This document shows positions 37,201 through 56,901 of a stretch of 64,000 bases of DNA, in pieces. The translations under genes and the position numbers were made by a program. The stretch covers positions 3,410,001 to 3,474,000 of the forward strand of contig OZ017749.1 of NCBI GenBank assembly GCA_963969365.1. The letters are read 5' to 3'. The notes under the pieces are model-generated. The model did not search any database, had not been told where the DNA came from, and saw only the letters and a program-made list of their open reading frames with translations. The first letter of the stretch is position 1. Each line of letters opens with the position of its first letter. Source of the DNA: Asterochloris sp. CNOR1 (taxonomy: Eukaryota; Chlorophyta; Trebouxiophyceae; Trebouxiales; Trebouxiaceae).

Positions 37201-40200
37201 GCAAAACAACCGCCTGCACGCGCAGCACCACTGCCAATGCAGTGCCAGGCTTGGACTCCTACCCAAGGACTGAGCACCCGCCCGTCTGCCCTGCAGTGCC
37301 TGCCCGTGCGGCGTTGAGTGCCGGCACACAACCACAGGGCCTGCTCATGTGCAGTGAGTCTGCAGACAGCAGGGCCCTGCGACAGGGTGGCATGCGCTCA
37401 CTGCCTGCCTGCTTGCCCTGCAGCGCCTGCATGTGCAGCACCAGGCAGCCATGCGCAACGCCGAGGGCCCCAGCCCCGAGATGTATGGCGAGTGCCAGGA
37501 GCTGCTGCAGCTGTTTGGGCTGCCCTACATCATCGCTGCCCAGGAGGCTGAGGCGCAGTGTGCCTGGCTGGACATGGAGGGCCTCGTGGACGGCACCGTC
37601 ACCGAGGACAACGACGTGTTCCTGTTTGGGGGGCGCCATGTGTACAGGTGAGGGGTTCAGGAACCAGCTGGATGGGGGGGTACTGTGGCTCGTGCTCGGT
37701 TGTTTCTGGCCGGCTCTCAATGCGCAACCTGGCTGTGGTGCATTTGATCCTGGGAGCAGGCAGGCACAGTAATGGGCCCCCCTTCCTGCTGACAGTAATG
37801 GGTCCCGTGGCACCCTACGGTGAACCCTTTGACGAAAGTGTGCAAAGTAGTGCTTGCCACACTCGTTTCTTGCTCTGGCTGCTGCCTGAGGCTTTCCCTT
37901 GCGCCTGCAGGAACATCTTCGAGAACCGCAAGTACGCCGAGGAGTATGTGATGGACCACATCGAGTCTGAGCTCGGCGTGGACCGGACCAAGCTGATTCA
38001 CCTGGCCCTGCTGCTGGGCAGCGACTACACTGAGGGCGTGGCAGGGGTGGGGGTGGTCAATGCTCTGGAAATTGCAAACCACTTCACCACCGAGCCCTTG
38101 CTGGAGGAGTTTAGGTGTGCTTTCTCTTGCTCACAATCTGCCTGAGGGTCAGTCTCCCCTCTTGGAGCCCTTCTGGTTGTCAAGCAAGAGCTCTATGACG
38201 CAAGCTGGTGAGGTTGAGGCTGCCAGCCTCTCACCCACTGAGGCGCTGCTGTCAGACTCCCAGATGGTACCTGCCTATCATGTCAGCCCACACATACTGG
38301 AGCCCTGCCTGTAAAAGATGCTGCTGTCTGCTGAGCTTGGATGCTGTATAGCAGCAGTGGTCTGTGCTTGAGGAGTGACTTCTGCCATTCATGCCATGGG
38401 TGGGTATGCCTCAGCCTGCACAGACTACGCTGCACATTGGTACCAGGCCTGTCTGCGCCAACATTATTTGGGCAGGTCAGATGCCTGCACAGGATGAGGG
38501 CTGCTGTGTATCTGGAAATGCTCCCTGCTTCTGCCGAGAGCAGGCAGAGGCAATGTACAGGAGGGGTGTGTGCCACCTGCCATCTGAAGCCTGCAAGGCT
38601 CAAAAGCAGTGGTTGCCCAGCTAGGGCTGCCGTGCATCAGAAGCCTGCCAGGCTCCACGCTGGCACTGGCACGCTCGACCAGTGAGGCCCAGTGTACCTG
38701 TGCAGGAAGCAGGTGAACGTGCATGAACCTGGACCCTGCCACTGTGAACACTGCTGCCTTTGCAGGGCGCAGGTGACCCCGATGCAGCTGCCGTCCAGCT
38801 GTGACTCATGCCCTGGGCCCCTGCCAAACACAGGAGGTACAGCATTGCTTGTCTTGAACGAGGGGTGCAGGCGTACTGCCTGCGCCGACACATGCCTGCA
38901 GAGGCACTTGCCGAAGGTGACTTCTGGTGCCTGTGCAGGAAGTGGGCAGGCAAGCCTGATGCAGAGGTGCTCCAGGCCCTGGGGGCAGATGAGAGCAGGC
39001 TGGACCTGGCACCCACCACCCCTGACCAGCGTGCAGCCATTGACAAGTACAAGCTGCAGCGACGCAAGCAGCGGCGGCACTGGCAAGTGCCCGAGGACTT
39101 TCCAAACAGGTCAGGATCATATACAAGAATGTCACTCAAGCCCAGGCCACGACAATGTAGCAGCTGCTTGCTGGCATGAGACAGCAGCTGCACTGGCAGG
39201 TGCCAGAGGAGTCCCTCTACAGGCACTTTTTCTTGCAGAGACATGAGTGCTGCCCTGAAAGCACACGTACTGCAGAGCGCACGCTGGCAGGCGCCAGAGG
39301 ACCTCCACAAAAAATGTTTCTGAAGTTCCCTTGGACTCAGTGAGGCCCTGGGCCCCCCTTCCTTACCAGTCTGCAGAGTAGCTCCTGCTGCTGCAGTACG
39401 TCCGAGGTTGCCTGGCTGCAGCGCCCCGCCACAGTGTACTGTATCAAAGGCTGACACAGCCAGCATTATTGACCTGCCGGATCCATGCCTGCAGTGCTGT
39501 CGTGAAGAGCTACGAGGACCCCAAGGTGGATGCCAGCAAGGCCGCATTCACGTTTGGGCGCCCCGACCTGGACCTGCTGCGGCGCTTCTGCGCGGACCGC
39601 TTCGGCTGGGACCAGGACAAGGTGGACCAGCTCATCCAGCCAGTGCTGGCGGTGAGTGTGGCCAAGCACCACAGCGGAGACAAGCTGCATTCCTGCAGCC
39701 GGGCCCTGGCTGCTGCTGCTGCTGCTGTCATGTGCTGTCAGCCGGCACCCTGCTGGTCAGCTTGCCTGAACTAATAATCTGTCATGTGCTGTTGGTGGGC
39801 AGCCTGTGACTCATTGTGCCTCAAACACCCAAAATGTAACTCTTTACCCCTGCCCTGGCGGCTGCTGCCTTGCTGCAGGTTTGCTGTGAGAGCTCTGCAG
39901 CCACATGTGCCGGTCGAGCTGACTGGCCCCCCACACAGGACTGCATCAGAGCCCTTCCTAGAATGTGGACGCTCTGATTGCCTTGCCTCACTCAGGGCTG
40001 CCTCAGGCCTGTCTAAGGGCCCCTCTGCTTCCCTAGGACTCTGGTCTGCTTGCCTCGTGTCAGACTTCTGAGACCTTCAGCCCTGCCCTGAAGGCCGCCC
40101 CCTGGATGCAGGTAGATCATCAGAGCTATGCAGCCAGATGCCACAGCTAGCCCTTCTGTTCGCTGCCTGCACCGCCTCAAGGGTTGACCCTGCAGCCCCG

Positions 40201-41238
40201 CCCTGGCTGCAGGTGTACGATGCTCGCGTGCATCAGCAGACCCTGGACCCATTCCTCACCTTCAGTCAGCGCTTTGCCAAGATCAAGTCCAAGCGCCTGC
40301 AGCAGGCTGTAGCTGGTAGCACCAGGCGCCCGGACCCGGAGCTGGTCTTTGGTAAGCATTCTATAGACATTCTTATATTGCTCTGACGCGACGTGTGTCA
40401 TGTGAGCTGGGCGCCAGTGCCAGACCCCATTCTCAGTGCAGCCCACGTATTAGCAGCTGGTGCCTGGATCCACCCAGACCCAGAAGTGATTTTGGCGAGC
40501 ACTCTATAAATAGTTGTTCTGCTCTGACCGGACGGGGTCTGCTCTGGCCAGACGGACGGACACCAGCGCTGGGCCCCTGACTCGATGCTGCCCACATGTC
40601 AGCAGCCGGTGCCTGGGTCCAGCAGCGCAGCAGCTCTAGCTCACTGGGCTTTCCAGGAAAGGATGCTTGCTGGTATGGCTTGTCTGCTGAGCCCAGCTTG
40701 CAAGCAAGCCTTTCTGCAATTACTGCCTTGCCTTACATTGGCATTGAGCCTTTGTACCCTTTTTCTGCAGTGGCTGGGAGCACTGCAGTGGGCTTATCAG
40801 TCTGTGGGTGAGCCTCAGATCCCTGCTGCAGGCGATACTGGTGAGGAGCCCAAGCCCAAGAGGCAGCGCAAGTCCAAGAAGACTGCAGCAGGCGATGCAG
40901 AGGCGGCTGGCGAGGCTGCAGCTGCTGGCAGTGCATCAACACGAGGTGGGGAGGCATAGCTGGGGCCGGTCCAGCATTTTGTGAGCATGGTGCCCTGCTG
41001 TCACACAGGCTAACTTGTATTCAGGTTGTGTGCCATGTGCTCTCTGGTGATGTGCCCAGCAGAAAGAGTGCTGTTGAGGCTGCCAGAAGATCATGCATGC
41101 TGGCAGCCTGGATGGCAGAGGGGCTGGCACTCCCCATCAAGGCTGTGTAAGTGTGCAGTTTGCGCCCATGTTGCTGCAGGGCGCAAGAAAGGGCAGGGAC
41201 GCGGCAGGGGCCGGGGGCGGGGACGCAGTGCTGCTTGA
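25220..41238 (+). CDS. ERCC5: XPG/ERCC5 (Rad2 family) structure-specific DNA nuclease
   Basis: XPG makes the 3' incision in nucleotide excision repair. The start [15 protein letters not shown] is diagnostic. N-region exons: 25220-25307, 25797-25986 ([20 protein letters not shown], catalytic Asp), 26987-27216 and 27653-27783. The spacer includes 30402-30604 ([18 protein letters not shown]), 31089-31309 ([14 protein letters not shown]), 31587-31708, 32149-32301, about 32919-32993, a long Ala-rich exon 33827-34843 and 35165-35341; several spacer exons up to 36760 are only partly resolved. The I region is 37424-37647 ([30 protein letters not shown]) and 37911-38114 ([20 protein letters not shown]), then 38939-39109, 39495-39651, 40213-40351, 40832-40945 and a basic GRGRGRGR tail 41180-41238. 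The catalytic carboxylates appear intact. A UIM-like motif ([12 protein letters not shown]) lies near 32955-32993 and a PIP-like QQTLDPFL near 40230. An IMPACT domain lies inside the spacer. Confidence 0.92.
27970..29710 (+). CDS. IMPACT/YigZ (UPF0029) domain, nested in or fused to XPG
   Basis: IMPACT proteins bind GCN1 and restrain GCN2 signalling; YigZ is the bacterial relative. Four same-strand exons inside the XPG gene encode the domain: 27970-28068 ([17 protein letters not shown] donor gcaagc), 28466-28606 ([26 protein letters not shown]), 29131-29228 ([26 protein letters not shown]) and 29554-29710 ([20 protein letters not shown]). The block is entered and left in phase 0 and follows XPG exon 27653-27783, which ends in phase 0. 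The next XPG exon (30402) also starts in phase 0. The first exon has no in-frame ATG between an upstream stop at 27880-27882 and its acceptor. Without splicing at 29710 the frame ends at a TAG at 29786-29788. No N-terminal RWD domain is seen. Fusion and nested gene are both possible. Confidence 0.85.
28905..29100 (+). repeat. Decayed copies of the third IMPACT exon's acceptor and start
   Basis: At 28911 the text gcaggactgccaagatgatg, then gagaggcggg, echoes the real junction at 29127 (gcaggactgtcatgatgatg, then gggaggcagg). Shorter echoes (gcaggactgccac, acaggactgctaccatgat) lie near 29013 and 29070. All sit in the intron just upstream of the true exon. Confidence 0.65.
30185..30290 (+). repeat. 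Decayed copy of the XPG exon that starts at 30402
   Basis: The segment translates as [13 protein letters not shown] and later PLSMQLDT, against [13 protein letters not shown] and PPSMQLDV in the true exon. The DNA is clearly related (ctgagcagcgtgaacctg against ctgagcagcgtggacccg). It lies in the intron immediately upstream. Confidence 0.7.
32250..32600 (+). repeat. Tandem array of an exon-intron unit in XPG, four copies of 107-110 bp
   Basis: The word ggggcgcagcctca begins at 32256, 32366, 32474 and 32581. Each unit carries an exon-like segment ([16 protein letters not shown] in the first, [16 protein letters not shown] in the second), a CAG|GT donor-like site (gaccaggtgggt or gaccaggtcagt) and, before the next copy, a ctttcag-type acceptor. 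Only the first copy is needed in my XPG model (exon 32149-32301). The later segments are 62 nt if spliced at their own sites, so adding one would shift frame. Confidence 0.85.
34512..34540 (+). repeat. GCA triplet repeat encoding poly-Ala in XPG
   Basis: A run of GCA codons with one GCG encodes about ten alanines in the low-complexity spacer of XPG, followed by a short Gly run. Confidence 0.85.
38640..39310 (+). repeat. Decayed copies around both ends of XPG exon 38939-39109
   Basis: Upstream, cctgtgcaggaagcaggtga at 38697 copies the true acceptor and exon start (cctgtgcaggaagtgggcag). Downstream, the exon end ggcactggcaagtgcccgag recurs as tgcactggcaggtgccagag near 39189 and as cacgctggcaggcgccagag near 39281. 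Each echo carries exon-end sequence and, in at least one case, a splice-like AG. Confidence 0.65.
40395..40650 (+). repeat. Decayed copies of the end of XPG exon 40213-40351 and its donor
   Basis: Around 40450-40525 the text cagctggtgcctggatccac, then cccagacccagaagtgattt and actctataaatagttgttct, follows the order of the true exon end, donor and intron start (gtagctggtagcaccaggcg, cggacccggagctggtcttt, attctatagacattcttata). A further fragment (agcagccggtgcctgggtcc) lies near 40600. Confidence 0.65.
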
Positions 41239-42539
41239 TGGTCGGCAGCAGAGCCATTTACTACTCAGTGGGGGTGCCAGGATGGCAAACTGCAAACTGT
41301 AATCTTTCTGCCATGGGAGGGAGCACTTGCCGGTGTCCCTGATGTGGCATCCTACATTGCTTCGTGCCACAGTAATGCAAGGCAGTTGTTCCGACATATC
41401 TGATGTGGCACTGTATTCATTTGAAGGAATCGATTTCATGACAAACACATGCACGTTGCTGTTCGAATTCACTACTTCATGGTTGTTGCATGCAACAACC
41501 ATGAACAACGAGGTCTAGTTCTGCAACCCCACATTGGCCCAACGATTGCGACAATTGCAGGCTCAGTGAGCCACTTGCAGTGCCTGCCAGAGGTAATGTG
41601 GAAAGTCCACCTCTGACTGAAATTAATTTTGAAATCAATCTTGTTCAGATGCTTCCCGTGCACTGCTGGCTGCTCTAGTCCTGCAGGACAGCCTGTACCG
41701 CTACTCTGTCGCTGGAGTCCTCATGGAGCACCACCGCGCTCCTCTGAGACCCAGGATAGGCTTTGTACACCTTGATGCTGTCTCCCAGCCAATAGGAGGG
41801 ATGGCTGAGGTCTCATGCAGACCTCACAGGGTCCAGCGCATCGCAGACATACAGCAAGGAACATTTTGTTCCAGCAGGAGGGCCAGGCTTGAAGCAGTCA
41901 AGAGGGTGCAAAGGCTATTTCAGCACTAGCTGCACAACGACTGCACAGGGCATACCATGCTGCAGACAGAGGCAGCCAGCTGCCCGCACAGGGGTGGTGG
42001 TAGGCGCCACATGACTGTCTCATCCACAATGCTGTGCGGTCGCTGCTTGTGACCTGCTATCCAAACAGGAGCGACCCACAGGCGCCATGTCTGTTGTGTC
42101 AGAGAGCCTGCAGCTTGAGAGAACGAGGCAAAGTACAGCCTTGTGACGTCAAGACCTTCAGTTGAAACACCACAGCTTGACGAGCATGTATCCCGCATGG
42201 GGGAACTTTGTTATGGCAGGATGGTGCCCGAGACAGCCTGTTGCACGCCTCTTGGCTGGTGAAGCCCAGAAACAGCAGCACTGAGAGGGGTTATCAGGTG
42301 GCTTGCGATCATCAGACTGTAAGGTGAGGGCACCTTGGTCTGGACAGCCACTGCACTGGCGGGGAGCTTCTGATGCAAGCGTATGATATGACCATGCACA
42401 ACGTTTCTGCAAGGGATCTGACGTGTGGAGGGAAGCCAGATGGAAAGAAATTTTAGACCTAAAGCCAGCTCAAGGTACCACGTTTGGGCAGCTTGCTGCG
42501 AGCAGCATCATGTTGACGCCACTCAGATGACACTTGCAT
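41239..42539. other. Intergenic region between XPG and the Y-family polymerase gene
   Basis: About 1.3 kb, AT-richer than the coding parts, with a perfect 30-bp palindrome (listed separately). A minus-strand stretch near 41690-41815 (SIKVYKAYPGSQRSAVVLH, ending in a stop) and another near 42010-42100 look weakly protein-like and could be exons of an unrecognised minus-strand gene, but I could not link them. The region should also contain the polymerase promoter. Confidence 0.4.
41476..41505. repeat. Perfect 30-bp palindrome
   Basis: The 15-base arm ttcatggttgttgca is followed directly by its exact reverse complement, with no loop. It lies about 240 bp after the XPG stop codon. It could form a hairpin in RNA or a cruciform in DNA, or be a dimeric protein-binding site. 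Confidence 0.9.
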
Positions 42540-45500
42540 ATGGACGACAAGCAGAAGAGGGAGCATTTCCGAGTGGAGCAGTTCTCAAAGCCTCATCCAG
42601 CTTTGCAAGCATCCACCTCAGAAACTCAGCAGTTGCCTGACCCAGAGGTGCCTGTGGATCAGGACAGATGCGTGATCCACTGTGATGTGGACGCCTTCTA
42701 TGCACAGTGTGAGGAGCTGCGCAATCCCAGCCTGCAAGGGAAGCCATTTGGTGAGTTTTGTGCAGCACAAGGTCAAAGATCTTGAGCGCTTCAGCCTGCC
42801 TGCCACAGCTGCAGGGCACAGCATAGCGTCTGCACACTTGACAAATAGCAGCAGGTGCTGCATGCAGTGCCACGCTGCCAAGTACTCTGATTCAAAGCTG
42901 CCCAAGTTGTTTCTTATGTTGCAAATAGGGATTACGCAGAAGTACCTGGTGGTGACAACATCGTATGAAGCGCGGCGCAGGGGCATCACCAAGCTCATGG
43001 GAATTGCAGAGGCCCGCCAGAAGTGCCCTGACCTGATGCTGGTCAGTGGAGAGGACCTGGGGCCCTACAGGGCTGCCAGCAGAGCTATCTTAGACGTGCT
43101 GCGGCGTTTCGGGGTGAGCACTGAGCAGCCTTGGGGGAACCAGTTTGCAAAAGCTGCTGTCACGGCCTGTCAGCAGCTTGCCACTTGAGCATGCATCATG
43201 CCTGTGCCTGCCTCTTAACTCCAATGGATGCCAGCTCAGGAGGCTGGGTGGCTCTCAAAAGGACCTGGGAGCTGGTCGCAGGCTGTATAACTCATGCTGC
43301 GGGAGCTAAGCTTTGTCAATCACGCAAGTGAAAATAGAGATCAAGCGGCTGCTGCAGGCAGCTGAGCATAGCGGCGTGGGTATAGTGCATCTAGGTGTCA
43401 CCAGGATTGAGAATTAGCCTCAACTACACCAGCACCCAGTGCTGTTTCTGCATAAGGCTGCCTGCAGTGGCATGACAGCATCATTGAGCTGTGCGAGCGA
43501 CAGATGAATGGTCGACTGTGACACTGCTGCAGGTGGCTCATTGCAGCGCTGTATACTGTGGCGCTGGTGGAGTAGATACAGCAAGACACAGCAAATCGCA
43601 CATTGCTGCAGGTGGCCGTGCGCATTGTGAAGGGGTCCAGGGCTGGTACTACAACCGGCTGCTGAGCCGACGCTTCAATAGCTGAGCTATGACGAGGGCA
43701 GGTCGCCTCTGCTGCTGCAGGTGGCCGAGCGCGGCGGCATGGACGAAGTGCTCGTGGATGTGACCGCTGAAGCGCAGGCCCGCATTGCCCGAGGCGCTGC
43801 AGAGACGCGCTGGCGGGCTCATGTGCACACCAGCAAGGTGAGGCACGCCAGCTTGCTCGTGCCGTTTACCAGAACAGTGATTGTGCTTCGTCAAGGTGAC
43901 CCTGTTCCAAAACATTTGCAGGCCTTCCACAAGGGACGTGCTGCCGTGACAAGGACAGGCAGGCGCACACAACATGTGCAGTCGTGTGCGCAGCTATCGT
44001 CCCCTGCAGGCAGTGCTATCCCAGGACACCAACAGAACTCACTGCCTCGTCTGTTCCTGCAAGCATTGATGCATGTATGCTTTTCCCTGCAGGTGGCGCT
44101 GTTTCGGGACAATCGCCACCGCCCCATGGACTTACGTGCTGGCCTCCAGTATGAGCTGCGTGCAGTGGCCCCTGTTGTGACAGACTCCAGCCAGGATCCC
44201 AGCCAGCCCACAGCTGCAGAAGCGCAAGCACAGCCCACATCCTGGCAGCCACTGCTCATGACAGGCACAGCCATTGCCCAGGAGGCAAGGGCTGCCATCA
44301 GGGTGAGACTGGACCATGAAATCATGCAGCTTGGCAGACCCATGCAGCGCATTTCATCTCGCAGGAGCTCTGGCAGCGACAAAGTCAGGCAGGGTGCCCG
44401 CCACTTGTGCTCTCTGCGCAGACTGCTTGGGAGACAGCATCAGGGTCTTTCTGCTAGGGCCGACCCTCAGTTCTGCTGCATGGCTCGGCATGCCCTCCTT
44501 GCATCAGCACGGCAAGCAACAGTGTCATGCAGCCCCAGGACTCTCCTGCCAGTGCCCCCCCCGCCCTGCGGTCTGAAAAGTCATCTACTGCTCATTAGGT
44601 GTGTGCAATCTCTGCCTGACAGGCCTGGCTATCCTCTGGGCAGAGGAGGGCAGAGGAGGGGTTCCTTCCCTTGGCAGGCTGGCCTGCAGTCTCCTTTTGA
44701 CTGCTTTGGAAGCCATTCCAGCTGAGCAGAGGTTCTCCTGCTCACCAGGGGTGGCCTGCAAACGCCTCCTGAAACCTTTGGCTGCCTTGTAGAGTACTTG
44801 GCTGCCTTGCAGAGTACTTGGTACAGAAGCAATGTTGCTCCTGACCAGGAGTTGACAGGACTGCAACCCCCTCCTGACACTTTAGGCTGCCCTGTAGGCC
44901 GAGACTGGGTTTCGCACCTCAGCAGGGGTGGCCTGCAACCGCCTGCTGGCCAAGCTGGTGTCTGGCCTGCACAAGCCTGACGACCAGACGGTGCTGTGCC
45001 CGCCCGATGCACCTGCCTTCGTTGCTCCTCTACCTGTGCGCGCATTGCCAGGGATCGGGTACAAGACTGACGGCGAGCTTCAGGCAAGTGTCACTGTTTG
45101 CATTGGTCAGTGGTGTCATGCAGTCTGGCTTGCTCAGTGAGCGCAAGTATGCTGGCGGCTGCTTGCTGCTGTCAGAGTGGTCACCCTTGCGGCGCCACTG
45201 TCGATTTGTCATGCGTGTGAATGGCAGCACCTTGTTATCTTTGCAGAAGTGCCAGGTGCCCATCTGGGGCCTCTTGCATGTCACGTGGGCAGGATGCAGA
45301 GTCAGGAGCTTGTCGAGGAGCAGCATGCATAGGGAACCCCACGGCTGGCTCGAAGTCCAGCATGGTTGATGCCCCACTTTGTTGCAATTGTTAGGGTGTT
45401 TTAGGGGGTTGCTGGGCCTGAGATTGTCCACACTGTTCAGTGGCAGCCTGCACCATCAGGTCCAGACATGAGATACCTCTGCTGATAAGCACAGCCAGCA

Positions 45501-47191
45501 GCCTCTAATCAATGTTCAGCAGCAGATGAGCTGAGACCATCTGCACTTTGGCTGGCACGTTCTACAACTGCCCTGCATGCACTGCAGGTGATGGGCATCC
45601 ACACAGCTGCAGAGCTGAGGCTACAGGCACTGCCAGATCTGTGTACACGGTTTGGAGCTCGAGTCGGGCACCTTCTGCACAATGCTTCCAGAGGCCTGGT
45701 AGGTCTGGGCCTGGTTGTCTTTGGGGTAGTGGCCTGGCTGAGCATGACTGCATGGCTGCTGCTGCGATGGCTACTGACTGCCGCAGGTGCTCGGCATGTG
45801 CCTGCTCACACTCTTGCAGTCCTGTCGCGAGTAGCACCTGCACAGCAGTGTAGCAGTTGAACCATTGTGCTGCAATCCCCAGCTAGCATTTACAAGGCAG
45901 CTTTGTCAACTTTAGCGCTATGATGGCGGTTCTTGAGTGGCTTCTGCATGTGAGCCATGCTGTTGAGAGGCTTCCTTGGCCCCTGATCCTGACAGCAGAA
46001 CCCTGCCCTGTGGTAGAGACAGACCTTGTACATAACATCATTTCAACACTTGTTTGCTGGCTCACGATAGCCCTGATCCTGGCTACAGGAGCCCGCCCCA
46101 GTGGTGGACAAATACCCTTGAGGGACACTCACCTCTTATTCTACTTCAGGTGACTCACTCGAGATCTGGCTTGGCTGCAGGACCCCAATCCAGTGGTGGA
46201 CAAGGGCCCCGTGAAGAGCATCACTGTGGAGGACAGCTTCAAAACCTGCTCTAGCCTGGCGGCTGCGCAGCACGTGCTGCAGGTGCTGGCGCCAGACCTG
46301 CTGTGCAGGATGGCGGAAGATCAGCAGGTGAGGCAGCACAGGTGTCGTTGCGAGCGCTGCACTGAGCGTTGCAGAGCAGGGCGCCTGCCTTGTCTGCTTC
46401 CCCAGGGGCATGAGGATGCGGAAGCGAGACAGCTTGGGACGTCACAGCACTGCACACGTGGGTGCCTGTTTGGTCTGCCCGTTCAGGTGCATGGCTGAGG
46501 GTCGGGAGGCGAGGCAGCTGGAGCAGTTATGCATTGCTTTAGGGGTCAGGATTTAGGATTCAGGGTCTGAAGTGTATGGTGTGCTCATCAAGGGCTGTGC
46601 AGTGCGTGGAACCTGCTGAGCTGCAGGCCTGCCCTTGGCAGGCCTGTAACCTGAGGCAGCAGTTGTGCAATGCTGAGGCTCTGACAGCCGTCGCCTGTAG
46701 GAGACGAGCAGAGTGGCGCAGACGCTGACGCTGAAGTGGCGGCGCCACGGGCAGGGCTGGGGACGCAGCTCTGCCTCGGTGCCCATGCCAATGCTGCTTC
46801 ACAGGCCTGAGGAGGGCTCCCAGGAGCAGGCAGCCCTGTTGACCAGCGCTGCTGCCCAGCTGCTGCGGCGCAACCTGCAGGTACGCGCCACGGATATCAG
46901 ATGAGGTACCCGGACACCAGCACATGCAACATCTGCTGGGGGCAGCACACATCTACATGGACACCAGCACAGACAATATTTTGCAGCTTATGCCTTATTC
47001 TTGAGGAATGAGGAAATCCACTTGCTCCCTGCAGGAGCCCTTCAATTTGACCCTGCTCAACGTTGGCTGCACAAACTTTTCAGAGCCCCGGCGCTGCGGC
47101 AGCGGAGGTCTGGCTCCGGCCTTTCAGCGTCTCTTTGGGGAGTCAGCTGCCGCCGGTGCAGCATCTGCTGGTCCACCTGCTGATCTCTCAG
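42540..47191 (+). CDS. POLI: Y-family DNA polymerase, Pol iota-like (first polymerase of a tandem pair)
   Basis: Pol iota is a low-fidelity translesion polymerase. Exons 42540-42750, 42929-43113, 43721-43837, 44093-44302, 44365-44388, 44898-45083, 45588-45698, 46181-46327, 46701-46880 and 47035-47191 join in phase. Motifs: CVIHCDVDAFYAQCEE (metal-binding Asp), ITQKYLVVTTSYEARRRGIT (a Pol iota signature), GEDLGPYR, the palm site GGMDEVLVDVT with the Asp-Glu pair intact, GVACNRLLAKLVSGLHKP, the helix-hairpin-helix LPGIGYKTDGELQ, and the little-finger block SFKTCSS ... PFNLTLLNVGCTNF. The 24-nt exon and exon 44898-45083 both need GC donors (gcaggg, gcaagt). The last exon ends in phase 1 and no stop codon belonging to this polymerase was found. 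It joins in phase to 47801, so the gene may continue into the next polymerase. Confidence 0.9.
44655..44800 (+). repeat. Decayed copies of the Pol iota exon that starts at 44898
   Basis: The intron segment near 44742-44795 reads SPGVACKRLLKPLA, against SAGVACNRLLAKLV in the true exon; in DNA, caggggtggcctgcaaacgc against caggggtggcctgcaaccgc. Another fragment with ctggcctgcagtctcc lies near 44680, and repeated agagtacttggctgccttg units follow it. Confidence 0.65.
46080..46132 (+). repeat. Decayed copy of the Pol iota exon start at 46181
   Basis: The text ggctacaggagcccgcccca, then gtggtggacaaatacccttg, mirrors the real junction ggctgcaggaccccaatcca, then gtggtggacaagggccccgt. A weaker echo lies near 45985-46010. 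Only about the first 15 codons of the exon, plus the acceptor, are copied. Confidence 0.65.
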
Positions 47192-47584
47192 GTGGGTGTG
47201 CTGAAGGCTCACATCACAGCATGTGCATCATGCAGGTGCACCTGCACCACAGCAAGCTAGCTCAGGGCGATACGCGCCTTCTTGGGATTCAGCCGCCGCC
47301 AGGGCAGGATGTTGTGAAGCCCCCTCTGCTTCCCAGAAGCACCATTTAGCGCTTAAGCCCGCTGAGATGGAGAGTACTGCAGCTTTGGAAAGGCTGTGCG
47401 TACCCGTGGCCGAATCTTCTGTTGCAGTCATGTCGATGGCATGTGCTGCCCAAGCTGCCCAGCTATCATGTCTGTCTATATCAGCCTGCACAGAGCTGGC
47501 AGGGGCCCACATTGCCTGCTGTATCTGCCACCACCCGCTGCTCTGGCCGACAAGCACAATTTTGTGATGGCAGAGGCCTCTCAG

Positions 47585-47665
47585 GTGCAGAGCTGGCAGG
47601 GGCTGCCATGCTGCAGCGCCGAGCCTATGTGAGCCACTCACAGTTGTGGCAGACAAGCGCCGCAC
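47585..47665 (+). repeat. Decayed copy of the exon start at 47801
   Basis: The text gagctggcaggggctgccat, then gctgcagcgccgagcctatg, near 47590 matches gagctggcagaggctgccat, then gctgcagcggcgcgcctatg, at the real junction near 47791. The copy is also phase-compatible with the end of exon 47035-47191 and has a GTGAGC donor after AAMLQRRAY, so it could act as a small alternative exon. Confidence 0.65.
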
Positions 47666-47800
47666 TGCCCTGCAGGGGTTGCATCGTCTAGCTTGGCACT
47701 GCCACGCTGCACCGCTGCGCCTCTGGCACCACCTACTGCAGTGGCAAACAAGGCCCCCACTGACCTACAGGGAGTACGCTGGCTGGCGCGGAGCTGGCAG

Positions 47801-50800
47801 AGGCTGCCATGCTGCAGCGGCGCGCCTATGGGGACCAGCCCAGCGTGGCCTGCATCAGCAAGAGCACAGAGCGTGCACTGCGAGAGGCAGCCCTGAACAA
47901 CTGTGCTGGCAGCGTGGCTCACACCAGCAGCAGCAGCAGCCCGAAGCACGAGTCTCAGAAGCAAACCCACCCAGCACCCCTTCTCCATGAGGCACTGTCA
48001 CTGGACGGATCCAGATTGGATGTTGTCAGCAGAGGACCGCCTGCCAGCTCTCCTGTAGTGTCAGGGGCATCAACACCGGCGCCTGAGAGTGGCACAACCT
48101 TGTCAGGCAGCAGGAAGCGCACAGCTCAGGAGGCCTTTGCAGCGGCGCCTGCCGTTGTCAGAGGCTTGGGCGACCGTGTCATCATTCACGTGGATGTGGG
48201 TGAGCACTAGCAACAGGCGTTGAGAGGCCTACTTCTGGCTCACTTTGTATGCTGAGTGCAGGGCCATGTCTGTTGACAGCAGTGATGACTACCTCACTGC
48301 TCTGGGCCGCTGCTCTGCTTTTGTTCTGTCGTGTGCCTGCTCTGCTGCAGAGTCAGCTCAGCTGTGCTGAATGCTTTGAGGTGCCATTGTACTGCTCCCT
48401 GCACACTCACCTGCCAGAAGCTCTTCATTGTAAAGCTATGAGCACTGATGTGATGACCAATGTGCATTGCATTACAAACGCTCTCTCACTCCACTTGCTC
48501 AGGTCATGGTCGTATGAAAGGCGGTGGTGACCGCTCTGTGATGCAATTGCAGACGCCTTCTACTGCTCTGTGGAGCGCCTGGATGATTCCACGCTGGTGG
48601 GGAAGCCGCTGGCTGTCGAGCAGTTCAACTCAGGAGGGTTCGTGGCCGTTTCATATGAGGTCAGCCTGGTGTGACTGTGAGGTTGCTGCAGCCAGCTTGA
48701 CTGCCTCTCTGAGCCCCAAGCTAGACGGCCAAAACCTTGCATGCACAAGTTGCTCCACAAAGTCTTATGGCTGCACAAGAGCAGGCCACAAGCTGTGCTG
48801 CTGTGGCCTAGCAGGCGACTTGCAGCCCACAAACCTGACCCTGCTTTAGCCTGCGCTACCAGGGGACTGCATGCCCAAGACATCTCCTGCCAAGAGGTTG
48901 CCTGTCTTGTAGGCAAGAGCTGCAGGCATCAGGTGTGGGGATGGAGTGGGTGCTGGTGGTCGTGCCAACATCCAACACCTGAAGAATATGAAGGTGTGTG
49001 TGTGAGAGCTCGCTAAGGTGCTGGCTGCATACGAATAAGCAGGATTGCTAGTATGGCCTGAACACTCTGCCCAAGGTGCCTTTGCTGAAGGTGTCGGGAC
49101 GTTGTGCTGTAGCAATACAGCTGCCGCCCACTTAGCTTGAGGTTGGGCCGCTCCACTACTTACTGCGGCCATGGCAGACATGCTGGGGCCTGTGCTGATG
49201 ATGCTGAGGAGTGCCGGCTGGGTGAATGAGATGTGGTGCTTCTGCAGAAGTGTCCTTGCTAAGGATGTCTTTCCTGACCTGCCGCGATGTGACGGTGGAC
49301 AACAACTCAGAGGCCTATGCTGTGAGTGCTGTGGACTGTTTGTGCCCTTCTGCAGGCTGTGAGCAAGGAGGAGGCCCTGAAGAGGTGCCCTGACCTACAG
49401 ATCCGCCCAATGCGCACTACCAGGTGCAGACAGCGCCTTGCAGCATCTGCCGCCCTGACACGCGCAGCTGCCCACCCCTGCCTGCTGTGCCTTACTACTG
49501 ACTGCTCCTGTATACCTATAAAGTTCGTTCTGTCAACAGCCCCTGCATTGCAATGTGACCTTCTTACGCTTTGCTTTTGTAAAGCCATAGTTCTCATCTG
49601 GCTGCCAACACCCTTTCGTTTCCTGCAATGCAGGTACAGAGAGATGGGCGCTCAGGTCGAGGCCAGGCTGCGCGGCTTCACCTCTCGCCGGGAATTTGTC
49701 GAGAAGACAAGCTATGATGACGTGAGTTGCGGGCGTGCATGCCTGGCCATCTGGGTGCAGCATGGCCTGCTTGAGCTCAGGGGGCTGGTCAGTTGTGTCA
49801 GCGTAGGCTGTGTAGCAAGACGTTGTTGTAGCCCTTGTCATTGCTGCGGTGGACACTGGAGACCAGGCATGTGAGTGCTCACGCTTATCTTTGCAGGTCT
49901 TGCTCAACGCGCTGCAGATGCGTCCTGACAAAATTTCTGATGTGTCTTTACAGATGTACTTGGACGTGACAGACTTGTGTGGGCATGGGTCAGACTGGCC
50001 ACCGCCTGCAGAAGCGCCTCCTGGCATCTTTGTCCAGGAGGGTCGCTGGGACGATGTTGCTTCAGAGCTCAGGAGTGGGGTGCAGGTGGGCAAGACTGTC
50101 ATGTTGATGCTGAGCTAGAGAAGGCATCTACCGTGCACTTGGGCATGCCCATCTCATCCTGGCAGTGCTCCAGGCAGCGCTATCTGGGCGTCCTGGGATT
50201 TGTTCTGGGCTGCGCTACACCGTAACACTTTCATCTAAGGCCAGCCACTGGAGAGGGACCTGCAGTTCACCTTGCTGCTCGCCGGCCTGCATGTGGGCAG
50301 CTCAGTTTGTGATGTTGAAGCACTGCTGGAGTACACACATGAGCAGCAGTTCAGACGCTGCAGCGTCGCCAGCCAGCCAGGCACAGGCACAGCACCTTGC
50401 TAGCTCTGCACAGGACTGTCACAAGCCCCACCCATGCCTGTGCCCGTGGCTCTGCACAACACTTGCGGCTGCCTCCTCGGCATCCTGCACCTCTTGCTGC
50501 AGGTGGCCTTGGCACTGCGTCAAGCACTTAAGGATGAGCTGGGTCTGACAGTGTCCTGCGGGGTGGCCCGCAATCGCCTGCTGGCACGCCTTGTGGGGCC
50601 CCTGCACAAGCCAGACTGCGCCACAGTCCTGCCAGATGGGGGCGCGGTGTCCTTCATTCGGTCACAGCCCCTCCGCCACGTTCCCTCGCTCAGGTGTGCA
50701 GTTAATGTGCTGCGTGGCCTTTCCAGAAGGCCTGCCAGTGTGTTGTCATCAGGCCCTGCTGTGTTGACTCCACAGCTGCCAGCAAGTCATTTACAGCGCT

Positions 50801-53800
50801 CCTGGTGTCCAGGCCACTGCGTGGATTGACCTTTCTAAGCGGGTCTAGCACTGCTGAACATGGCACCAACAGCGTTCTGTGTGTGCACACTTGACGTGAT
50901 TCTGTACAAAAGCCAGCTGAAAACCCCCCAGATGGTGCTGCAGCTTTGCACCGTTACTCACCTGCGCTACAGGGGTGCAGCCTCGTCCCGCACTTGGACT
51001 TGCCAGAGATGCTTTCTCTGGTGCTGCGTCCATGTGCTGCGTTGCCTCCCAAGTCTGTCACAGGCTTCCTCACAGCTCACTGCCAACACCTTTCAGCGGC
51101 ACTCCAGGTGGTCTCTGCTTCGCCTGCAGGCAGAAGGTGGGGGCCCAGGTAGTGGCTGAGCTGCATGTGCAGACTGTGGGCGACCTGCTGGCATTTCCAG
51201 CGGCCACGCTGACCGCAAAGTTTGGGGCGGCAGTTGGCGCCTTCCTGGTGGCGCTGCCTCATGCAGTGGATGACACGCCGGTGAGACTTCCTGTGGCATC
51301 CACAGTATTTCACCCAGCATTGGTGTGGTCATGCGCAGCCCAGCTTGATCGTGCACCTCGATATCCAGCCTGACTTAGAAACCGTGAGAAACCAAAGCAT
51401 GCAAAGCAGTTGGGGGGAAAAGCTGAGAGAACTCTGTGATCTGCGTCACGCCATCTGTGGATTGCACCATACAGCTCTTGATCAGTGAGTGGGACAATCT
51501 ATGTTACATGCCTGCTGTGCAGATTTGTGCACGCGGGCCCCAGAAGAGCATCGTGTGCGAGATGTCTTTCCCTCCCCTGCACTCGGAGGCAGCCATCACA
51601 GCCGAGTTGCGCCCCTTGGCAGAGCAGCTGTGGCAGCGCCTGCAGCAGGTGAGGATCCTGGGGCACGTTGAGGATGTTGCTGCAGCTGTGGGAGCGTTGA
51701 AGGGGGCTTGTTTGCTGCGCATGAGGACCGTTGTTGGCCTCTTGTCTCCTGGTAAAGCAGTTGTGGCAGACCCTGCAGGCGAGAACTCTGCCATGCATGG
51801 GGGTGTGCTTCCTTCACATAGGGGCATGCTGGAGATCTGGCTTTGCACAGGAACACCTGTGGCAGCGCCTGCAGCAGGTCAGGCACCTACAGGCTTGGTG
51901 CAGGCATTTGCATGCTTCAGTTCTGGCTCCTGGAGCCACGTCAGCCTCGCGGGACCCCTGCTTCTCTGCACCTCCCTGCCTCACCTCTTCTGGCAAAGCC
52001 CTTCTTCTTGCGCACATCACATTCCTGGCTCTCACTCTGCTGCAGGATGCTGCAGAGCACAGCCGTGTGCCGGCGCGGCTTACTGTGGGTTTCCGTCATG
52101 GTTACACGGCGCCTGCTTCGCGGTCTGTGCCCATGCCAGGCAAGGTCCAGCATGTCCTCCTGCTGGCTGCTCGGGCCTCAGCAAGTGCTAGCCATGCTAG
52201 TGCTGGTGCTGACAGACAGGCAGCTGTCAGTGGCAGGGGCAGTGCAGAGGGGCAACAAATTAGCCAGCAGGCTGCTGGGGCCCGTGAGAATGCAGCTGAG
52301 GTTGCTGGTGTCAGGCATGCTGCTGCCCGTGCTGCTAGCCTGGCAGAGAGGGCAGGAAGCCCCCATACTGCTGATGCTGGCACCAGCATGCCCGCTGCCA
52401 CCGGTGGCAAAGACGGCTCAGCGGCGCAAACAGGCCTGGGTACCGCTGGTGCCAGCAGGGACTCAGCAGGGGGCTCTGCAAGTGTTGCTGCCAGCATGCC
52501 TGCAGCTATCAGCAACAGTGTGGCCGTGGATAGGCACAATGGCCTTGGTGCTGGAGGCCCCAGCTTGCCTGCTGCGGCTGATGGTAGCGTCAGCGCTGAG
52601 GGGCTGCACCACCGGGACGGGAAGGCAGAGACTCCAACCCCTACCCCCGACAAGGCTGTTTCTGCCAGTGGGGCCGGCATTGCTGGAGGAGGCAGCAGCA
52701 CGACAGGGAGCAGCTGTGAGGCGGCCCCTCAGGCACCGCCCAGCGGTGCTGAGCGGGCTCCTGAGGGGGACTCTGCAGGCGTAGGGCCTACAGCTGGTGA
52801 CTCTCAGGGTGAGGCATGTTTCAAAGGTGTGCTGTATTGCTCTGTGTGACTGCATGGTGGTCCAGACAGAGGTGCTCTGTTTGTTGGGGGTGCGGGGTGG
52901 CCTGTGGTGCATGATGGTGTGCTTGCATGTGAGTGAGCAGTTTGCCTGCTTGCACTGCCTGGTACCTCTGCCTCTGTCAAGCCGCCTGCTACTACCATGA
53001 CTGCAGACAGCCCTCACTTCAACGCAGGCAGCACATCACCTCGCATGCTGCACACCCAGCGACTGCGATCACAAGCTTGGGCCACCCCATGGCTTGCTGC
53101 AGCTCCGCAAGCAGGCATGGTTGGGCTGCCTGCACGCAGGCATGACTGCGCCCAGGAGGGCCACGACATGCAGCATCGATGCAGGCCCTCCCTTGTGCCT
53201 GCACGCTGTGCTACCCGCAGGCAATCTCGGCACCAGCAGCAACTGCCGCGAGAAGCTTTGGCTGTCCCGTGGCTTGCTGTTGCTCTGCAAGCAGGCATGG
53301 TTGCGCTGCGCGCGGGCAGCATCAGAACCCAGGAGGGCCACGGCATGCAGCATCGATGTAGGGCCTCCTTTGAGCCTGCATGCTGTGCCGCCTGCAGGCA
53401 ATCCCGGCCCCCAGGCTGGCAGTGCCCCGGCTGCCTTGGATTCTGGCAGAGAAGCCTGCGCCTGCATGGTATCTGAGGCACTGGCCATGATCCGCAAGGC
53501 GCTGGGCAGTCCCCTTAATGTGACACGGCTGGCAGTGGGCGCTGCCTTCGACTCGCAAGGGAGCATGAGTGGCATGCGCTCCATCCAAAGCTTTTTCGGG
53601 GCGGAGAGGCCTGCCATTGACGGCAGCGCGGCTGCCAGCCTGCCGGTGCAGGCAGGCCCAGGCCAGCAGACCGTGGCTTCCACGGAGACCTGCCATGCAG
53701 GTGGTGGACTGTTGCCCAACAGCCCCAAAGCTGGCCTGGCTGAGTCCCACAGCCTGGCTGCCACTGGTCCTGGATCGTCATCTGGCCTGGCTGGAGGTCC

Positions 53801-54350
53801 TTATAATGGAAGGTTACCTGGTGACCTAGATGAGCAAGGGCAGCGTGGTCTGGCTGCTGTGAAAGGTGCAGCAGCGTCTCCACCCCCTGTGCAGAAGCGC
53901 AGTGAGCACAGGCTGCGGCAGACTTGGAGCTGCAATCTCTGCACGTTTGCGGGGAATCCCCAGCTCAATCTGCGATGTGAGGTCTGCCAAAATGTGAGGG
54001 GCTCCATGCCAGACAGCCTGCTGGGCAACACCGCGAAGGACAGCAGCAGTCAGGCCTCACAGAGGGTGGCAAATGGCTCAGCAACCCAAGCAGGGCGCAG
54101 CAGTAGCCCTACAATGCCACAGACTAGACACCAACTTAACTTCAAGGAAGCCGCTCTCTCTTGGAAGCAGCCCAGTAAGCCCAGTGCAAAAAGGCCAAAG
54201 GTCATGCAGAGCATCAACTCAAGCTGGAAACAACAAGATGCCTGCTCCAACCGCTGGCAGTGCGCTCAGTGCTTGGAGTGGGTTCCCACAAATTCAAAGT
54301 CAGAGCATGAAGACTTTCACTTAGCACTGACCTTTGAACATAGTGCCTGA
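47801..54350 (+). CDS. POLH: Y-family DNA polymerase, Pol eta-like, with NZF and UBZ fingers (second polymerase of the pair)
   Basis: Exons 47801-48199, 48553-48659, 48913-48993, 49356-49423, 49634-49721, 49954-50085, 50503-50693, 51130-51280, 51523-51648, 52046-52808 and 53398-54350 join in phase. Motifs: DRVIIHVDVDAFYCSVERL, LAVEQFNSGGFVAVSYEARA, KRCPDLQIRPMRTTRYREM, VSCGVARNRLLARLVGPLHK. The palm motif reads TSYDDMYLDVT, Asp-Asp where the family has Asp-Glu. A long Ala/Ser/Gly-rich linker (exon 52046-52808) follows, then a PIP box (MRSIQSFF, near 53572-53600), a RanBP2/NZF-type finger (WSCNLCTFAGNP ... CEVC, near 53925-53990) and a UBZ3-like finger (CAQCLEWVP ... EHEDFHLAL, near 54258-54335), as in Pol eta. 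The only Met in the first exon is at 47809. It either starts there or, since 47801 is phase-compatible with 47191, continues from the Pol iota domain. Confidence 0.9.
51745..51885 (+). repeat. Decayed copies of the end of Pol eta exon 51523-51648
   Basis: The real exon end and donor read ctgtggcagcgcctgcagca|ggtgagg. The intron holds ctgtggcagcgcctgcagcaggtcagg near 51859 and the more diverged ttgtggcagaccctgcaggc near 51762. Both include the donor position. Confidence 0.65.
53045..53400 (+). repeat. 177-bp tandem duplication ending at the last Pol eta exon's acceptor
   Basis: The word catgcagcatcgatg occurs at 53167 and 53344, 177 bp apart. Surrounding text repeats in order: ccgtggcttgctg-like text, gcaagcaggcatggttg, cccaggagggccacg, and an acceptor with exon start (cgcaggcaatctcggc against tgcaggcaatcccggc). 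The second acceptor (exon 53398) keeps the long frame. The first copy also opens a frame, so either could be used. Confidence 0.75.
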
Positions 54351-54482: not shown

Positions 54483-56901
54483 TCAATGTAGCCCAGAGCA
54501 GTTGGTGTACACTGTGTCCACATCGTCAACAGCTAGAAGTCTTTCGAGTAACATCTGGTTCACCTCTAGAGCCGCGTCATCACACTGCAGCGCTTCAAAA
54601 CGCTAATCACTGGACAGTGCGCGAAAAGGTGGCATCAGCCAGCAGGCATTGCCATGCACTGGGCAGGCATGAAGCAAGCAGTGCAGAGTGCTGACCTCGA
54701 CCAGTGCGTGCGGGACTTGAGCCAGGCCAGACCGTTCCTCAACGACGGGCATCTGCTGCTCATGAAGCCTTGAGTGTACCAGGGCAAACTCTGTCAGTGG
54801 GCACACCACCTGCCAGTCAAGCAGAACATCAACCTCAGAGGAGAATGCCAGTCATGCAGTGCAAGAGAGAGGCAGCCCTGTGCAAGATGTCTCACGCCAC
54901 AGGGACAGCAATAGCTGCACGCTGCCCAGCGTGCATGCTGCAGTAAAGTCTGGTGCCCCCACACATGCCATGCTGTGTGATACCCCTACATAGACAATTG
55001 GCAGCCAAATGGCACCTGAAAGAGCATTGCTGTTCGATTCAGTTTCGGAGATGCCTGTCATGCTTGCCTTGTGCCCCTCTAGTTGCTCCTCCTCATCCCT
55101 GACTGCCTGAACATCCTCAGCCCCTGCATTCATGGCAGCCTCGAGAGCATCGTCTTCACTCGTGCTGCTGTCCAGAAACACGATGCCCTTCCTCTCAAAG
55201 TTGAAGGAAACGCTGCCTGCACAGCACACCAGCCAAGCTGAGAGTCAATTGCTGTCGGGTGCATGTCACAAGTGTTGCGCACAGGATTGAGAGTCTGGCT
55301 GCCTGCACAGCATGTCACCTGCAAAGCTGGAGACCACACTGCCTGCAGGGGACAGGTCACTGCCATCCCCATGGAACAGTGAAGGACATGCTGACCTTGA
55401 CCGACGGCGAAACATGATGGGGCTGTGTGCAGCAGTGCTCATTGAGTGCTAGTCTGCCACCCTGGCGGCTCAGCCCTCTTGCTGTCCACACAGCTCTGAT
55501 GGCCACCTTACCCCCGCTGCCTGCTGCCCTGACCAAGCAGCAGACATTGCTGTTCAATTCTGCTCCCTATGGTGACTGTGCAGCAATGAAATCTGTCTTT
55601 TGCTGCTCACCCACTTCGGCCATCTTCCCCCCGCCCTTGGTCACTGCTGTGCGGACCTCAAATGCTGAGCGGTTGATGTTGTCAGTGAGGCACTCGCAGA
55701 TGAAGCCTGTGCCTCCAGCGCCATACGCCTCATATGAGATCTGTAGAGGGCAGAGGTGCGCATTTATGTCGACGATCAAGACCCTACTGGATAGGGCTGC
55801 TCAAGGTGCAGCAGGTAGTTCAGCAAGCCACCACTTGCATGGCTGAAGGAGGTGGCCAAAATTGATGACGAACCCGTCAGGAGCAGCCTATCAGGAGACA
55901 GGCAGGCTTGCTTGCTGGAGGAGGTAGGTAGAACCCACGACAGAGCCTGTCATGTACAGCTTGCCACGAGGCAAGCAGAGGCTTTGCAACCTTGCTATCA
56001 AAGGCTTGCACCCCATGCCTTGCCTTGCACTATGTGAAGCTGTGCACCCCACCAGCCTTGACTGCTCCTGGCAGAGCATATCACACCAAGGGATGGCATG
56101 CATCGGCCAATGCCAGCCTGTCAGCCATGCCAGTGGCCGACTTTTTTGGGCTACATTTGACCTCCGCTCACCTGGCCAGCTCTGCTGCACACTCCCCAAT
56201 CTAGCAACCTGTGCAGAACACCAGCAGTGTCCTATCTGCCCAAGTCTGCACAAAGGACGCCACAAGTACAGGCAGGATGTGCTGCTGCTAAGTGCCGGCC
56301 CACCTCTCGGAAGTCGGCCTGTGACTTGTCTGAGGCCTTTTTCATGTTGCGGTCAACCACGTCCTTTGGCAGCTGAGCCTGTTGGGCCTGCCTGAGGGCC
56401 TCCTTGAGGAGGGGATTGGTTTCCTGATTGGGCCCACCGGCTTTTACAGCCTGAACAATAAGCTTTCCCAGCTTGCCATACAGCTTTGCCTTGCGAGCAT
56501 CCTGTGAGCCCTGCAGGTAGCAATTGGTGCAACAATCACGGCAAGCCATATGACACTCTTGGGAGCTACAGTAGTATCTAAATCAGTATGAGCTGCAGAC
56601 TGTGGCGAGGGAGTTGCTTTCAGCACTTTGCTGGTGCCCCAGATCTGGAACTGGATGGGTTGCTGAAGGCCTGCACAGTCAGGGCTGCACACACCTTCCG
56701 CGTCGCAATTTTTGCTGAGCGTCTGCCCATGCAAGTAGGGCTGCATGTCAGATGCCTGCGCTGTATACGGTGCTTCTGAGGCAGGTGCCACTGCTGAGGG
56801 GCAGAGGGCAGCTGGTGGACTCTGCAAAGGCTGTGCCAGCATGGCTGCCTCAGTGGCACGGTCATGTTCAGCAGATGGCAGATGATTCTTGATGCCTGCA
56901 T
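54483..56901 (-). CDS. YebC/TACO1 family translational regulator, organelle-targeted
   Basis: YebC/TACO1 proteins help ribosomes translate difficult motifs or activate translation in organelles. Exon 1 (56695-56901) gives a basic, low-acid N-terminus that looks like a transit peptide, then MGRRSAKIATRK, the plant-type start of the mature protein. Exon 2 (56304-56510) carries QDARKAKLYGKLGKLIVQAV and LPKDVVDRNMKKASDKSQ. Exon 3 (55611-55740) has ISYEAYGAGGTGFICECLTD and TAVTKGGGKMAEVG. Exon 4, starting at 55216, has SVSFNFERKGIV and the acidic EDDALEAAMNAGAEDV. Its donor and possibly one further exon before 54768 are unresolved. 54696-54768 (RSGLAQVPHALVE) and 54483-54584 (LEVNQMLLERLLAVDDVDTV) close the protein. 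The gene converges on the polymerase gene, 132 bp away. Confidence 0.88.

What the first reader, a model, noticed from the sequence alone, without database searches (positions are those of the whole stretch)
42540..54350. Possible single protein with two Y-family translesion polymerases (Pol iota-like + Pol eta-like)
The ten exons of the first polymerase and the eleven of the second join in one phase-consistent chain of 4587 nt (1528 residues plus stop) with no stop between them. The first polymerase has no stop of its own after its last recognisable exon (ends 47191, phase 1). The second polymerase's first exon can be entered at 47801 in exactly that phase, giving DLSE-AAMLQRRAY. Two complete Y-family catalytic cores in one polypeptide would be a new translesion architecture: an inserter-plus-extender pair held together and tethered by a PIP box and two ubiquitin-binding fingers. 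The counter-case is an ATG at 47809 that could start the second gene separately.
Basis: partly seen in the sequence, partly recalled or inferred. Interest (0 to 1): 0.88.

Follow-up and report, generated by a model that had tools for sequence, protein, structure and literature searches.

The report
Possible two-in-one translesion DNA polymerase
In what looks like a green alga, two neighbouring genes for DNA-damage-copying enzymes may be spliced into one double enzyme, a layout I did not find described in the papers I could search, but only RNA data can prove it.

Summary
The two polymerases are real: a Pol iota (42540-47191, 9 exons), then on the same strand a Pol eta-like polymerase (12 exons to 54350). 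A stop-free, phase-consistent 21-exon chain exists. Acceptor 47771 (score 7.2), same phase, gives a 1546-residue chain. For one protein: strong donor at 47191; coding-like codons between 47771 and ATG 47809; a gap resembling the locus's long introns. Against: a phase-1 open-frame acceptor this good precedes 11.9% of control ATGs; Pol iota read past 47191 stops at TAG 47347-47349, and that tail is not intron-like (about 0 bits per codon, correcting a wrong-frame value); ATG 47809 has a usable context; no RNA or related genome was available. Leaky-scanning bicistronic translation looks unlikely (19 ATGs in the Pol iota CDS, 11 in the gap). The second core has Asp for the catalytic Glu, so 'two complete cores' needs qualifying. 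Single protein about 0.57 (0.65 before the frame correction).

The parts
42540..47191 (+). Pol iota half, 9 exons: 42540-42750, 42929-43113, 43721-43837, 44093-44302, 44898-45083 (GC-AG donor), 45588-45698, 46181-46327, 46701-46880, 47035-47191
   Evidence: exons; IMS 9.1e-36, IMS_HHH_1 Pol iota thumb 6.3e-11, IMS_C 5.8e-08; human Pol iota chain 5kt6, 6.3e-67
47191..47191 (+). last exon base before donor CAG|GTGGGT, score 10.0, top 0.73% of GT sites
47192..47770 (+). 579-nt gap, read here as a phase-1 intron; holds a 53-nt copy (47584-47636, 85%) of the start of the following exon
47347..47349 (+). TAG where Pol iota would end if donor 47191 is not used
47771..48199 (+). junction/linker exon; 47809 is the only in-frame ATG in it
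47809..47811 (+). ATG that a separate second gene would use (GCTGCCATGCT)
48553..54350 (+). rest of the Pol eta-like half, 11 exons: 48553-48659, 48913-48993, 49356-49423, 49634-49721, 49954-50085, 50245-50292, 50503-50693, 51130-51280, 51523-51648, 52046-52808, 53398-54350
   Evidence: IMS 1.3e-29, POLH-Rev1_HhH 2e-07, IMS_C 1.4e-06; human Pol eta 5kfs, 9.6e-32
49719..49721 (+). GAC (Asp) where the catalytic Glu is expected, last codon before donor GAC|GTGAGT
53398..54350 (+). last exon: PIP-like MRSIQSFF, RanBP/NZF-like finger (weak), C-terminal UBZ
   Evidence: zf_UBZ 2e-05, 24.6 bits against cut-off 25.6; Zn_ribbon_RanBP 0.0052, 16.5 bits against 27; pattern scan: PIP and UBZ3 matched, NZF pattern did not

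Best explanation
The locus is most likely one 21-exon gene (junction 47191|47771) encoding a single protein of about 1546 residues: an N-terminal Pol iota core, a linker of about 130 residues, and a Pol eta-like core carrying the PCNA-binding (PIP-like) and ubiquitin-binding (UBZ, possibly NZF) tail. Inferred mechanism: the C-terminal tail docks the whole molecule on ubiquitinated PCNA, so the Pol iota core, for which I found no UBM, PIP or RIR pattern of its own, is delivered to the stalled primer end together with the second core and can insert opposite the lesion. The second core then extends or, if its Glu-to-Asp change cripples it, acts mainly as tether and DNA-binding scaffold. Shown: exons, domains, open chain, site scores. 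Inferred: splicing in vivo, one polypeptide, hand-off.
For: Donor 47191 scores 10.0; 0 of 208 GTs inside the exons reach that, while 5 of 19 homology-supported donors do. Acceptor 47771 scores 7.2 and is in phase. The 12 codons between 47771 and ATG 47809 score +0.483 bits per codon in frame (total 5.79 bits) against -0.08 and +0.009 in the other frames; 0.07% of 4167 intronic 12-codon windows and 3.1% of 1281 exon windows are as high, which suggests that coding starts upstream of the ATG. The joint feature (acceptor, phase, coding-like codons) was met at 3 of 122 intronic ATGs, 0 of 203 opposite-strand ATGs and 0 of 11 gap ATGs. No in-frame ATG lies between the TGA at 47761 and 47809; the only ATG-plus-phase-1-donor leaders found (donor score 2.5 or more, spliced to 47771) share one weak donor (47469, 3.4) and the longest scores -0.168. 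Two well-scoring rival acceptors, 47428 (6.8) and 47676 (7.0), open frames scoring -0.348 and -0.083. The gap carries a copy of the 5' end of the following exon, as 4 of 19 homology-supported introns do (4 of the 5 of 480 nt or more, a cut-off chosen afterwards), against 3.8% of background windows and 3.7% of 1255 ATGs. UBM, PIP and RIR patterns match nothing in the Pol iota half.
Against: No transcript, proteome or related algal genome could be examined. Pol iota read past 47191 to TAG 47347-47349 scores +0.005 bits per codon over 51 codons (total +0.25 bits, undecided); only 0.55% of 1082 overlapping stop-free intron windows and 2 of 70 intronic open stretches are as high, and 6.6% of 558 exon windows are as low, so this tail may well be coding and Pol iota may end there; an open run of that length has a chance of about 0.20. 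Weak acceptors 47340, 47574 and 47591 open short terminal frames scoring +0.062, -0.006 and -0.016, also undecided. A phase-1 open-frame acceptor as good as 47771 precedes 11.9% of control ATGs and 23 of 122 intronic ATGs. The models rest on 19 introns of this same locus. ATG 47809 has G at -3. TGTAA is absent from 47192-47808 but also absent after the Pol eta-like stop up to 56000. Echo copies occur elsewhere too: 30 clusters on the + strand. One product need not exclude the other: intron retention would give Pol iota alone.
Confidence: 0.57

Rival explanations
1. Two separate head-to-tail genes: Pol iota ends at TAG 47347-47349 or at a short terminal exon in the gap, and the Pol eta-like gene starts at ATG 47809 or from an unseen leader exon. 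The phase match is chance.
For: The read-through tail scores like neither clear intron nor clear exon (+0.005), and the best coding-like segment found in that frame ran on to 47322. Chance phase-1 open acceptor rate 11.9%. An ATG in acceptable context is present. Pol iota and Pol eta are treated as separate single-chain enzymes in PMC8595933 and PMC11276120 (passages).
Against: Strong donor at 47191; coding-like codons upstream of the ATG; no good leader exon found. The one same-strand spacing I could measure, XPG-like stop to Pol iota ATG, is 1.3 kb against about 0.5-0.6 kb here.
Confidence: 0.36
2. One bicistronic mRNA giving two proteins by leaky scanning, as described for green-algal bicistronic loci.
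For: Such loci are called pervasive in green algae (PMC11892635, passages).
Against: Reported bicistrons are AUG-depleted before ORF 2; here 19 ATGs lie in the Pol iota CDS and 11 in 47192-47808 (raw counts, not normalised to expectation). The inter-ORF gap would be 459 nt.
Confidence: 0.04
3. A single protein whose second half is a catalytically weak or dead Y-family domain used as a clamp and ubiquitin scaffold (ImuB-like in working, not in descent). A special case of the best explanation, not exclusive of it.
For: Catalytic Glu replaced by Asp; the second half has the longest branch after the DinB outgroup (1.02); the recruitment motifs found lie on it.
Against: Asp still carries a carboxylate; the first catalytic Asp and the finger, palm, thumb and little-finger matches remain. 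The change could be an error or polymorphism: one base, beside an off-consensus donor.
Confidence: 0.18
4. The second half is an in-place duplicate of the first within this lineage.
For: The halves are 32-33% identical over 410-423 aligned positions; two little-finger introns lie 3 and 4 columns apart in the same phase. Duplicate topology 4 is not rejected (p-AU 0.135).
Against: Five-sequence tree: the first half joins human Pol iota (88/76); duplicate topology 2 is rejected (p-AU 0.017). The thumb families differ.
Confidence: 0.05

Closest known systems
DNA polymerase iota (Rad30B/POLI)
   Same: IMS, Pol iota thumb model, IMS_C; DE catalytic pair (GMDEVLVD); QKYLVV segment as in human. POLI is known in some green algae, e.g. 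Raphidocelis subcapitata (PMC8595933, passages).
   Different: Recognisable exons end about 40 residues after the little finger; no UBM, PIP or RIR pattern found in this half; apparently continues into a second polymerase.
DNA polymerase eta (Rad30A/POLH)
   Same: POLH-Rev1 HhH thumb, PIP-like MRSIQSFF, C-terminal UBZ-like finger.
   Different: Glu to Asp at the catalytic pair; about 20-residue finger insert (exon 12); long Ala/Ser-rich stretch in exon 20; about 120 residues between ATG 47809 and the core.
S. pombe Eso1 (Pol eta joined to a cohesin acetyltransferase; the fusion is recalled, the passages read name it only as Pol eta)
   Same: A Y-family polymerase joined to another enzyme in one chain.
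   Different: The partner there is not a polymerase.
Bacterial ImuB
   Same: A Y-family homolog described as catalytically dead and part of a mutasome (PMC6511836, abstract in the listing and passages).
   Different: Bacterial, and partnered with the separate DnaE2; a likeness of working only.

Membership tests
Pol iota | Y-family palm/finger and Pol iota-type thumb | tested here: met
   PF00817 9.1e-36, PF21999 6.3e-11 (43 bits against cut-off 27)
Pol iota | Catalytic Asp and Asp-Glu pair | tested here: met
   alignment: HCDVDAFY, GMDEVLVD
Pol iota | Gln59/Leu62/Val64 template pocket (role and numbering recalled) | tested here: met
   qkylvv aligned to qkylvv
Pol iota | Two UBM ubiquitin-binding motifs (given for Pol iota in PMC11276120, passages) | tested here: not met
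   no UBM family listed at E up to 1; simple LP-type pattern absent from the whole chain; a diverged UBM could be missed
Pol iota | Groups with Pol iota in a tree | tested here: met
   5 sequences only, support 88/76
Pol eta | POLH-Rev1 HhH thumb | tested here: met
   PF21704 2e-07 (31.5 bits against 27)
Pol eta | Catalytic Asp-Glu pair | tested here: not met
   Asp-Asp; hence called Pol eta-like, not Pol eta
Pol eta | PIP box | tested here: met
   MRSIQSFF, the only PIP-pattern match in the chain; pattern only
Pol eta | C2H2 UBZ | tested here: inconclusive
   2e-05 but 24.6 bits against cut-off 25.6; Cys/His pattern present
Pol eta | Groups with Pol eta in a tree | tested here: inconclusive
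   topologies 1 and 5 both fit; 3 and 4 are not rejected either
Green-algal bicistronic locus | AUG depletion before ORF 2 | tested here: not met
   19 + 11 ATGs (raw counts, not normalised to expectation)
Fused dual polymerase | One transcript spanning both halves | not testable with these tools
   no RNA data

The most novel reading that the evidence does not exclude
A single natural polypeptide with two Y-family cores, Pol iota then Pol eta-like, sharing one PIP/UBZ tail, so that polymerase exchange at a lesion is intramolecular rather than competitive.
Probability: 0.45. Interest if true: 0.78.

Novelty: new variant of a known kind. Interest (0 to 1): 0.57.

Why it matters
How translesion polymerases swap at a lesion is usually studied with separate proteins competing for PCNA and Rev1. 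A natural Pol iota-Pol eta-like tandem with one shared clamp and ubiquitin tail would let inserter-to-extender hand-off be tested by deleting, swapping or killing either half of one molecule, and would show a way for Pol iota to do without a UBM/PIP tail of its own. Five full-text searches (55 rows listed of the 1,287 matches counted, overlaps possible) listed no paper whose title or shown abstract describes such a protein; most matches were not shown and the library is incomplete.

Tried and rejected
The correct frame (47194-47346) gives +0.005. Notebook entry 1 still carries the wrong value, and entry 2 calls all terminal-exon alternatives intron-like, which overstates; notebook entry 3 puts the XPG-like stop one base too high (it is 41236-41238). 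I lowered the single-protein odds from 0.65 to 0.57 for the first of these.

The third-position excess between the exon start and its intronic copy (4 of 5 differences) was set aside, because a neutral copy should not show it. Shared introns between the halves were not convincing. Copies of donor regions in the following intron were also tested, 20 of them: 1 at the floor (exon 19, p 0.003), exon 17 at 0.007, exon 7 at 0.017, the junction donor at 0.027; I do not use them. In one search, acceptors 47207 and 47236 (scores 5.3 and 5.5) were left out of the terminal-exon list because the introns would be 15 and 44 nt (shortest here 154); the frame opened by 47236 scores -0.194. Viral-contig scans with each half found no relatives. 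No whole genome is held for the window. Structure prediction was not used: it would not decide the question. The genome-contig scan was not used because that collection is bacterial and archaeal.

Limits: codon and splice models were trained only on this locus (19 introns, 20 or 21 exons), so scores are relative. Flank annotation was partial: 10 stretches were scanned, picked from the coding-like list.
Full report
What is there. The + strand from 42540 to 54350 holds two Y-family DNA polymerases. Assembling exons by homology and GT/GC-AG borders gives nine exons for the first (42540-47191) and twelve for the second (ending with the TGA that closes at 54350). The first half matches IMS (9.1e-36), the Pol iota thumb (PF21999, 6.3e-11) and IMS_C; the second matches IMS (1.3e-29), the POLH-Rev1 thumb (2e-07), IMS_C and, just under its cut-off, zf_UBZ. 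The best solved relatives are human Pol iota for the first (6.3e-67) and human Pol eta for the second (9.6e-32). A five-sequence tree puts the first half with human Pol iota (88/76) and leaves the second without firm support. Of two topologies in which the halves are sisters, one is rejected (p-AU 0.017) and one is not (0.135).

The chain. A position-weight model from the 19 other introns scores donor 47191 at 10.0 (top 0.73% of GT sites, both strands) but acceptor 47801 at -5.3, where 57.8% of AG sites score as high. Acceptor 47771 scores 7.2 (top 3.9%) and keeps the phase. With it the chain is 4641 nt and 1546 residues...PPADLS-GSTLAGAELAEAAMLQRRAYGDQ....

Is it one gene? For. (i) Donor 47191: none of the 208 GTs inside the exons scores as high, and 5 of the 19 homology-supported donors do. 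(ii) The twelve codons between 47771 and ATG 47809 score +0.483 bits per codon in frame, 5.79 bits in all, and about zero in the other frames; 0.07% of 4167 intronic windows and 3.1% of 1281 exon windows are as high. (iii) An ATG with a phase-1 acceptor this good and codons this coding-like behind it is met at 3 of 122 intronic ATGs, 0 of 203 ATGs on the opposite strand of the locus and 0 of 11 in the gap; outside the locus, with real coding ATGs included, at 18 of 1047 (+) and 9 of 1000 (-). (iv) No in-frame ATG lies between the TGA at 47761 and 47809. Possible separate leaders (three ATGs sharing the phase-1 donor 47469, score 3.4) were the only ones found at the limits used, and the longest scores -0.168. 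(v) The gap contains a 53-nt copy, 85% identical, of the start of the next exon. Such copies upstream of acceptors are found at 4 of 19 homology-supported introns, namely 4 of the 5 introns of 480 nt or more, against 3.8% of background windows, 3.7% of 1255 ATGs and 4.1% of 603 acceptor-like sites on the + strand. The one independent start-codon control, the ATG of Pol iota, has none.

Against. (i) Read past 47191, Pol iota reaches TAG at 47347-47349. In the correct frame these 51 codons score +0.005 bits per codon, +0.25 bits in all, which decides nothing; 0.55% of 1082 overlapping stop-free intron windows and 2 of 70 intronic open stretches are as high, and 6.6% of 558 exon windows are as low. 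One search gave -0.19 for this tail, but in a wrong frame. A segment search had also run the Pol iota frame on to 47322. So a separate Pol iota ending there is a live possibility. (ii) Of ten acceptors scoring 0 or more after 47191 with an intron of at least 60 nt, 47771 opens the best frame (+0.154, which is mostly the exon that is coding in any case). The well-scoring rivals 47428 and 47676 open frames at -0.348 and -0.083; weak acceptors 47340, 47574 and 47591 open short frames near zero (+0.062, -0.006, -0.016), which two homology-supported exons also show (-0.064 and -0.008). (iv) All scoring models come from this one locus. (v) ATG 47809 has a usable context. (vi) Chlorophyte TGTAA poly(A) signals (PMC1868727, passages) are absent from 47192-47808, but also absent after the Pol eta-like stop up to 56000; the upstream XPG-like gene has one at 41298, about 60 nt after its stop at 41236-41238. 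That the organism is a green alga is inferred from such features, not identified. No RNA, no genome and no relative could be examined. Both products, Pol iota alone by intron retention and the long chain by splicing, could also exist.

Bicistronic expression is known in green algae and reported to rest on leaky scanning with few AUGs before the second ORF (PMC11892635, passages). Here 19 ATGs lie in the Pol iota CDS and 11 in the gap (raw counts), so that rival is unlikely.

How it would work. The Pol iota half keeps the catalytic carboxylates and the segment that narrows the human active site (QKYLVV; role recalled), so it should insert like Pol iota. UBM, PIP and RIR patterns found nothing in that half; the only PIP-pattern match and the UBZ lie at the far end of the chain. 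In one polypeptide the shared tail would bring both cores to ubiquitinated PCNA. The second core carries Asp-Asp instead of Asp-Glu (codon 49719-49721, beside donor GAC|GTGAGT), a finger insert and a long Ala/Ser-rich stretch. It may extend weakly, or serve mainly as a scaffold in the way ImuB does in bacteria. These steps are inferred.

Against the literature. Pol iota is already known from green algae such as Raphidocelis (PMC8595933, passages), so its presence is not new. Five searches (listings only, 55 rows shown) showed no dual Y-family protein in a title or shown abstract. Eso1 as a polymerase fusion is recalled; the passages read name it only as Pol eta.

Verdict. Single protein about 0.57, lowered from 0.65 when the read-through tail was rescored in the correct frame. 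If true it is a new variant of a known kind.

Noticed in passing
window 49719-49721: The catalytic Glu of the Pol eta-like half is Asp; the codon abuts an off-consensus splice donor (GAC|GTGAGT). Could be a mutation, polymorphism or sequence error.
   Followed up: partly
window 43604-43623, 44741-44765, 46080-46111, 53197-53234, 47584-47636: Several long introns carry degenerate copies of the acceptor or start of the following exon.
   Followed up: yes
window 53086-53408: 177-bp tandem repeat (1.8 copies) reaching over the acceptor region of the last exon.
   Followed up: no
window 25220-41298: XPG/Rad2-like endonuclease gene on the same strand directly upstream (XPG_N 7.4e-19; XPG_I below its cut-off), with TGTAA about 60 nt after its stop at 41236-41238: DNA-repair genes side by side. 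Start and stop read by eye.
   Followed up: partly
window 45083: GC-AG intron (CAG|GCAAGT) in the Pol iota half.
   Followed up: no
window 22361-22687 and 56295-56516, minus strand: Nop-domain (PRP31-like by recall) and TACO1/YebC genes.
   Followed up: no
window 14116-14307: Acidic stretch reminiscent of POLD3 from memory only; no Pfam match at E up to 0.01.
   Followed up: no
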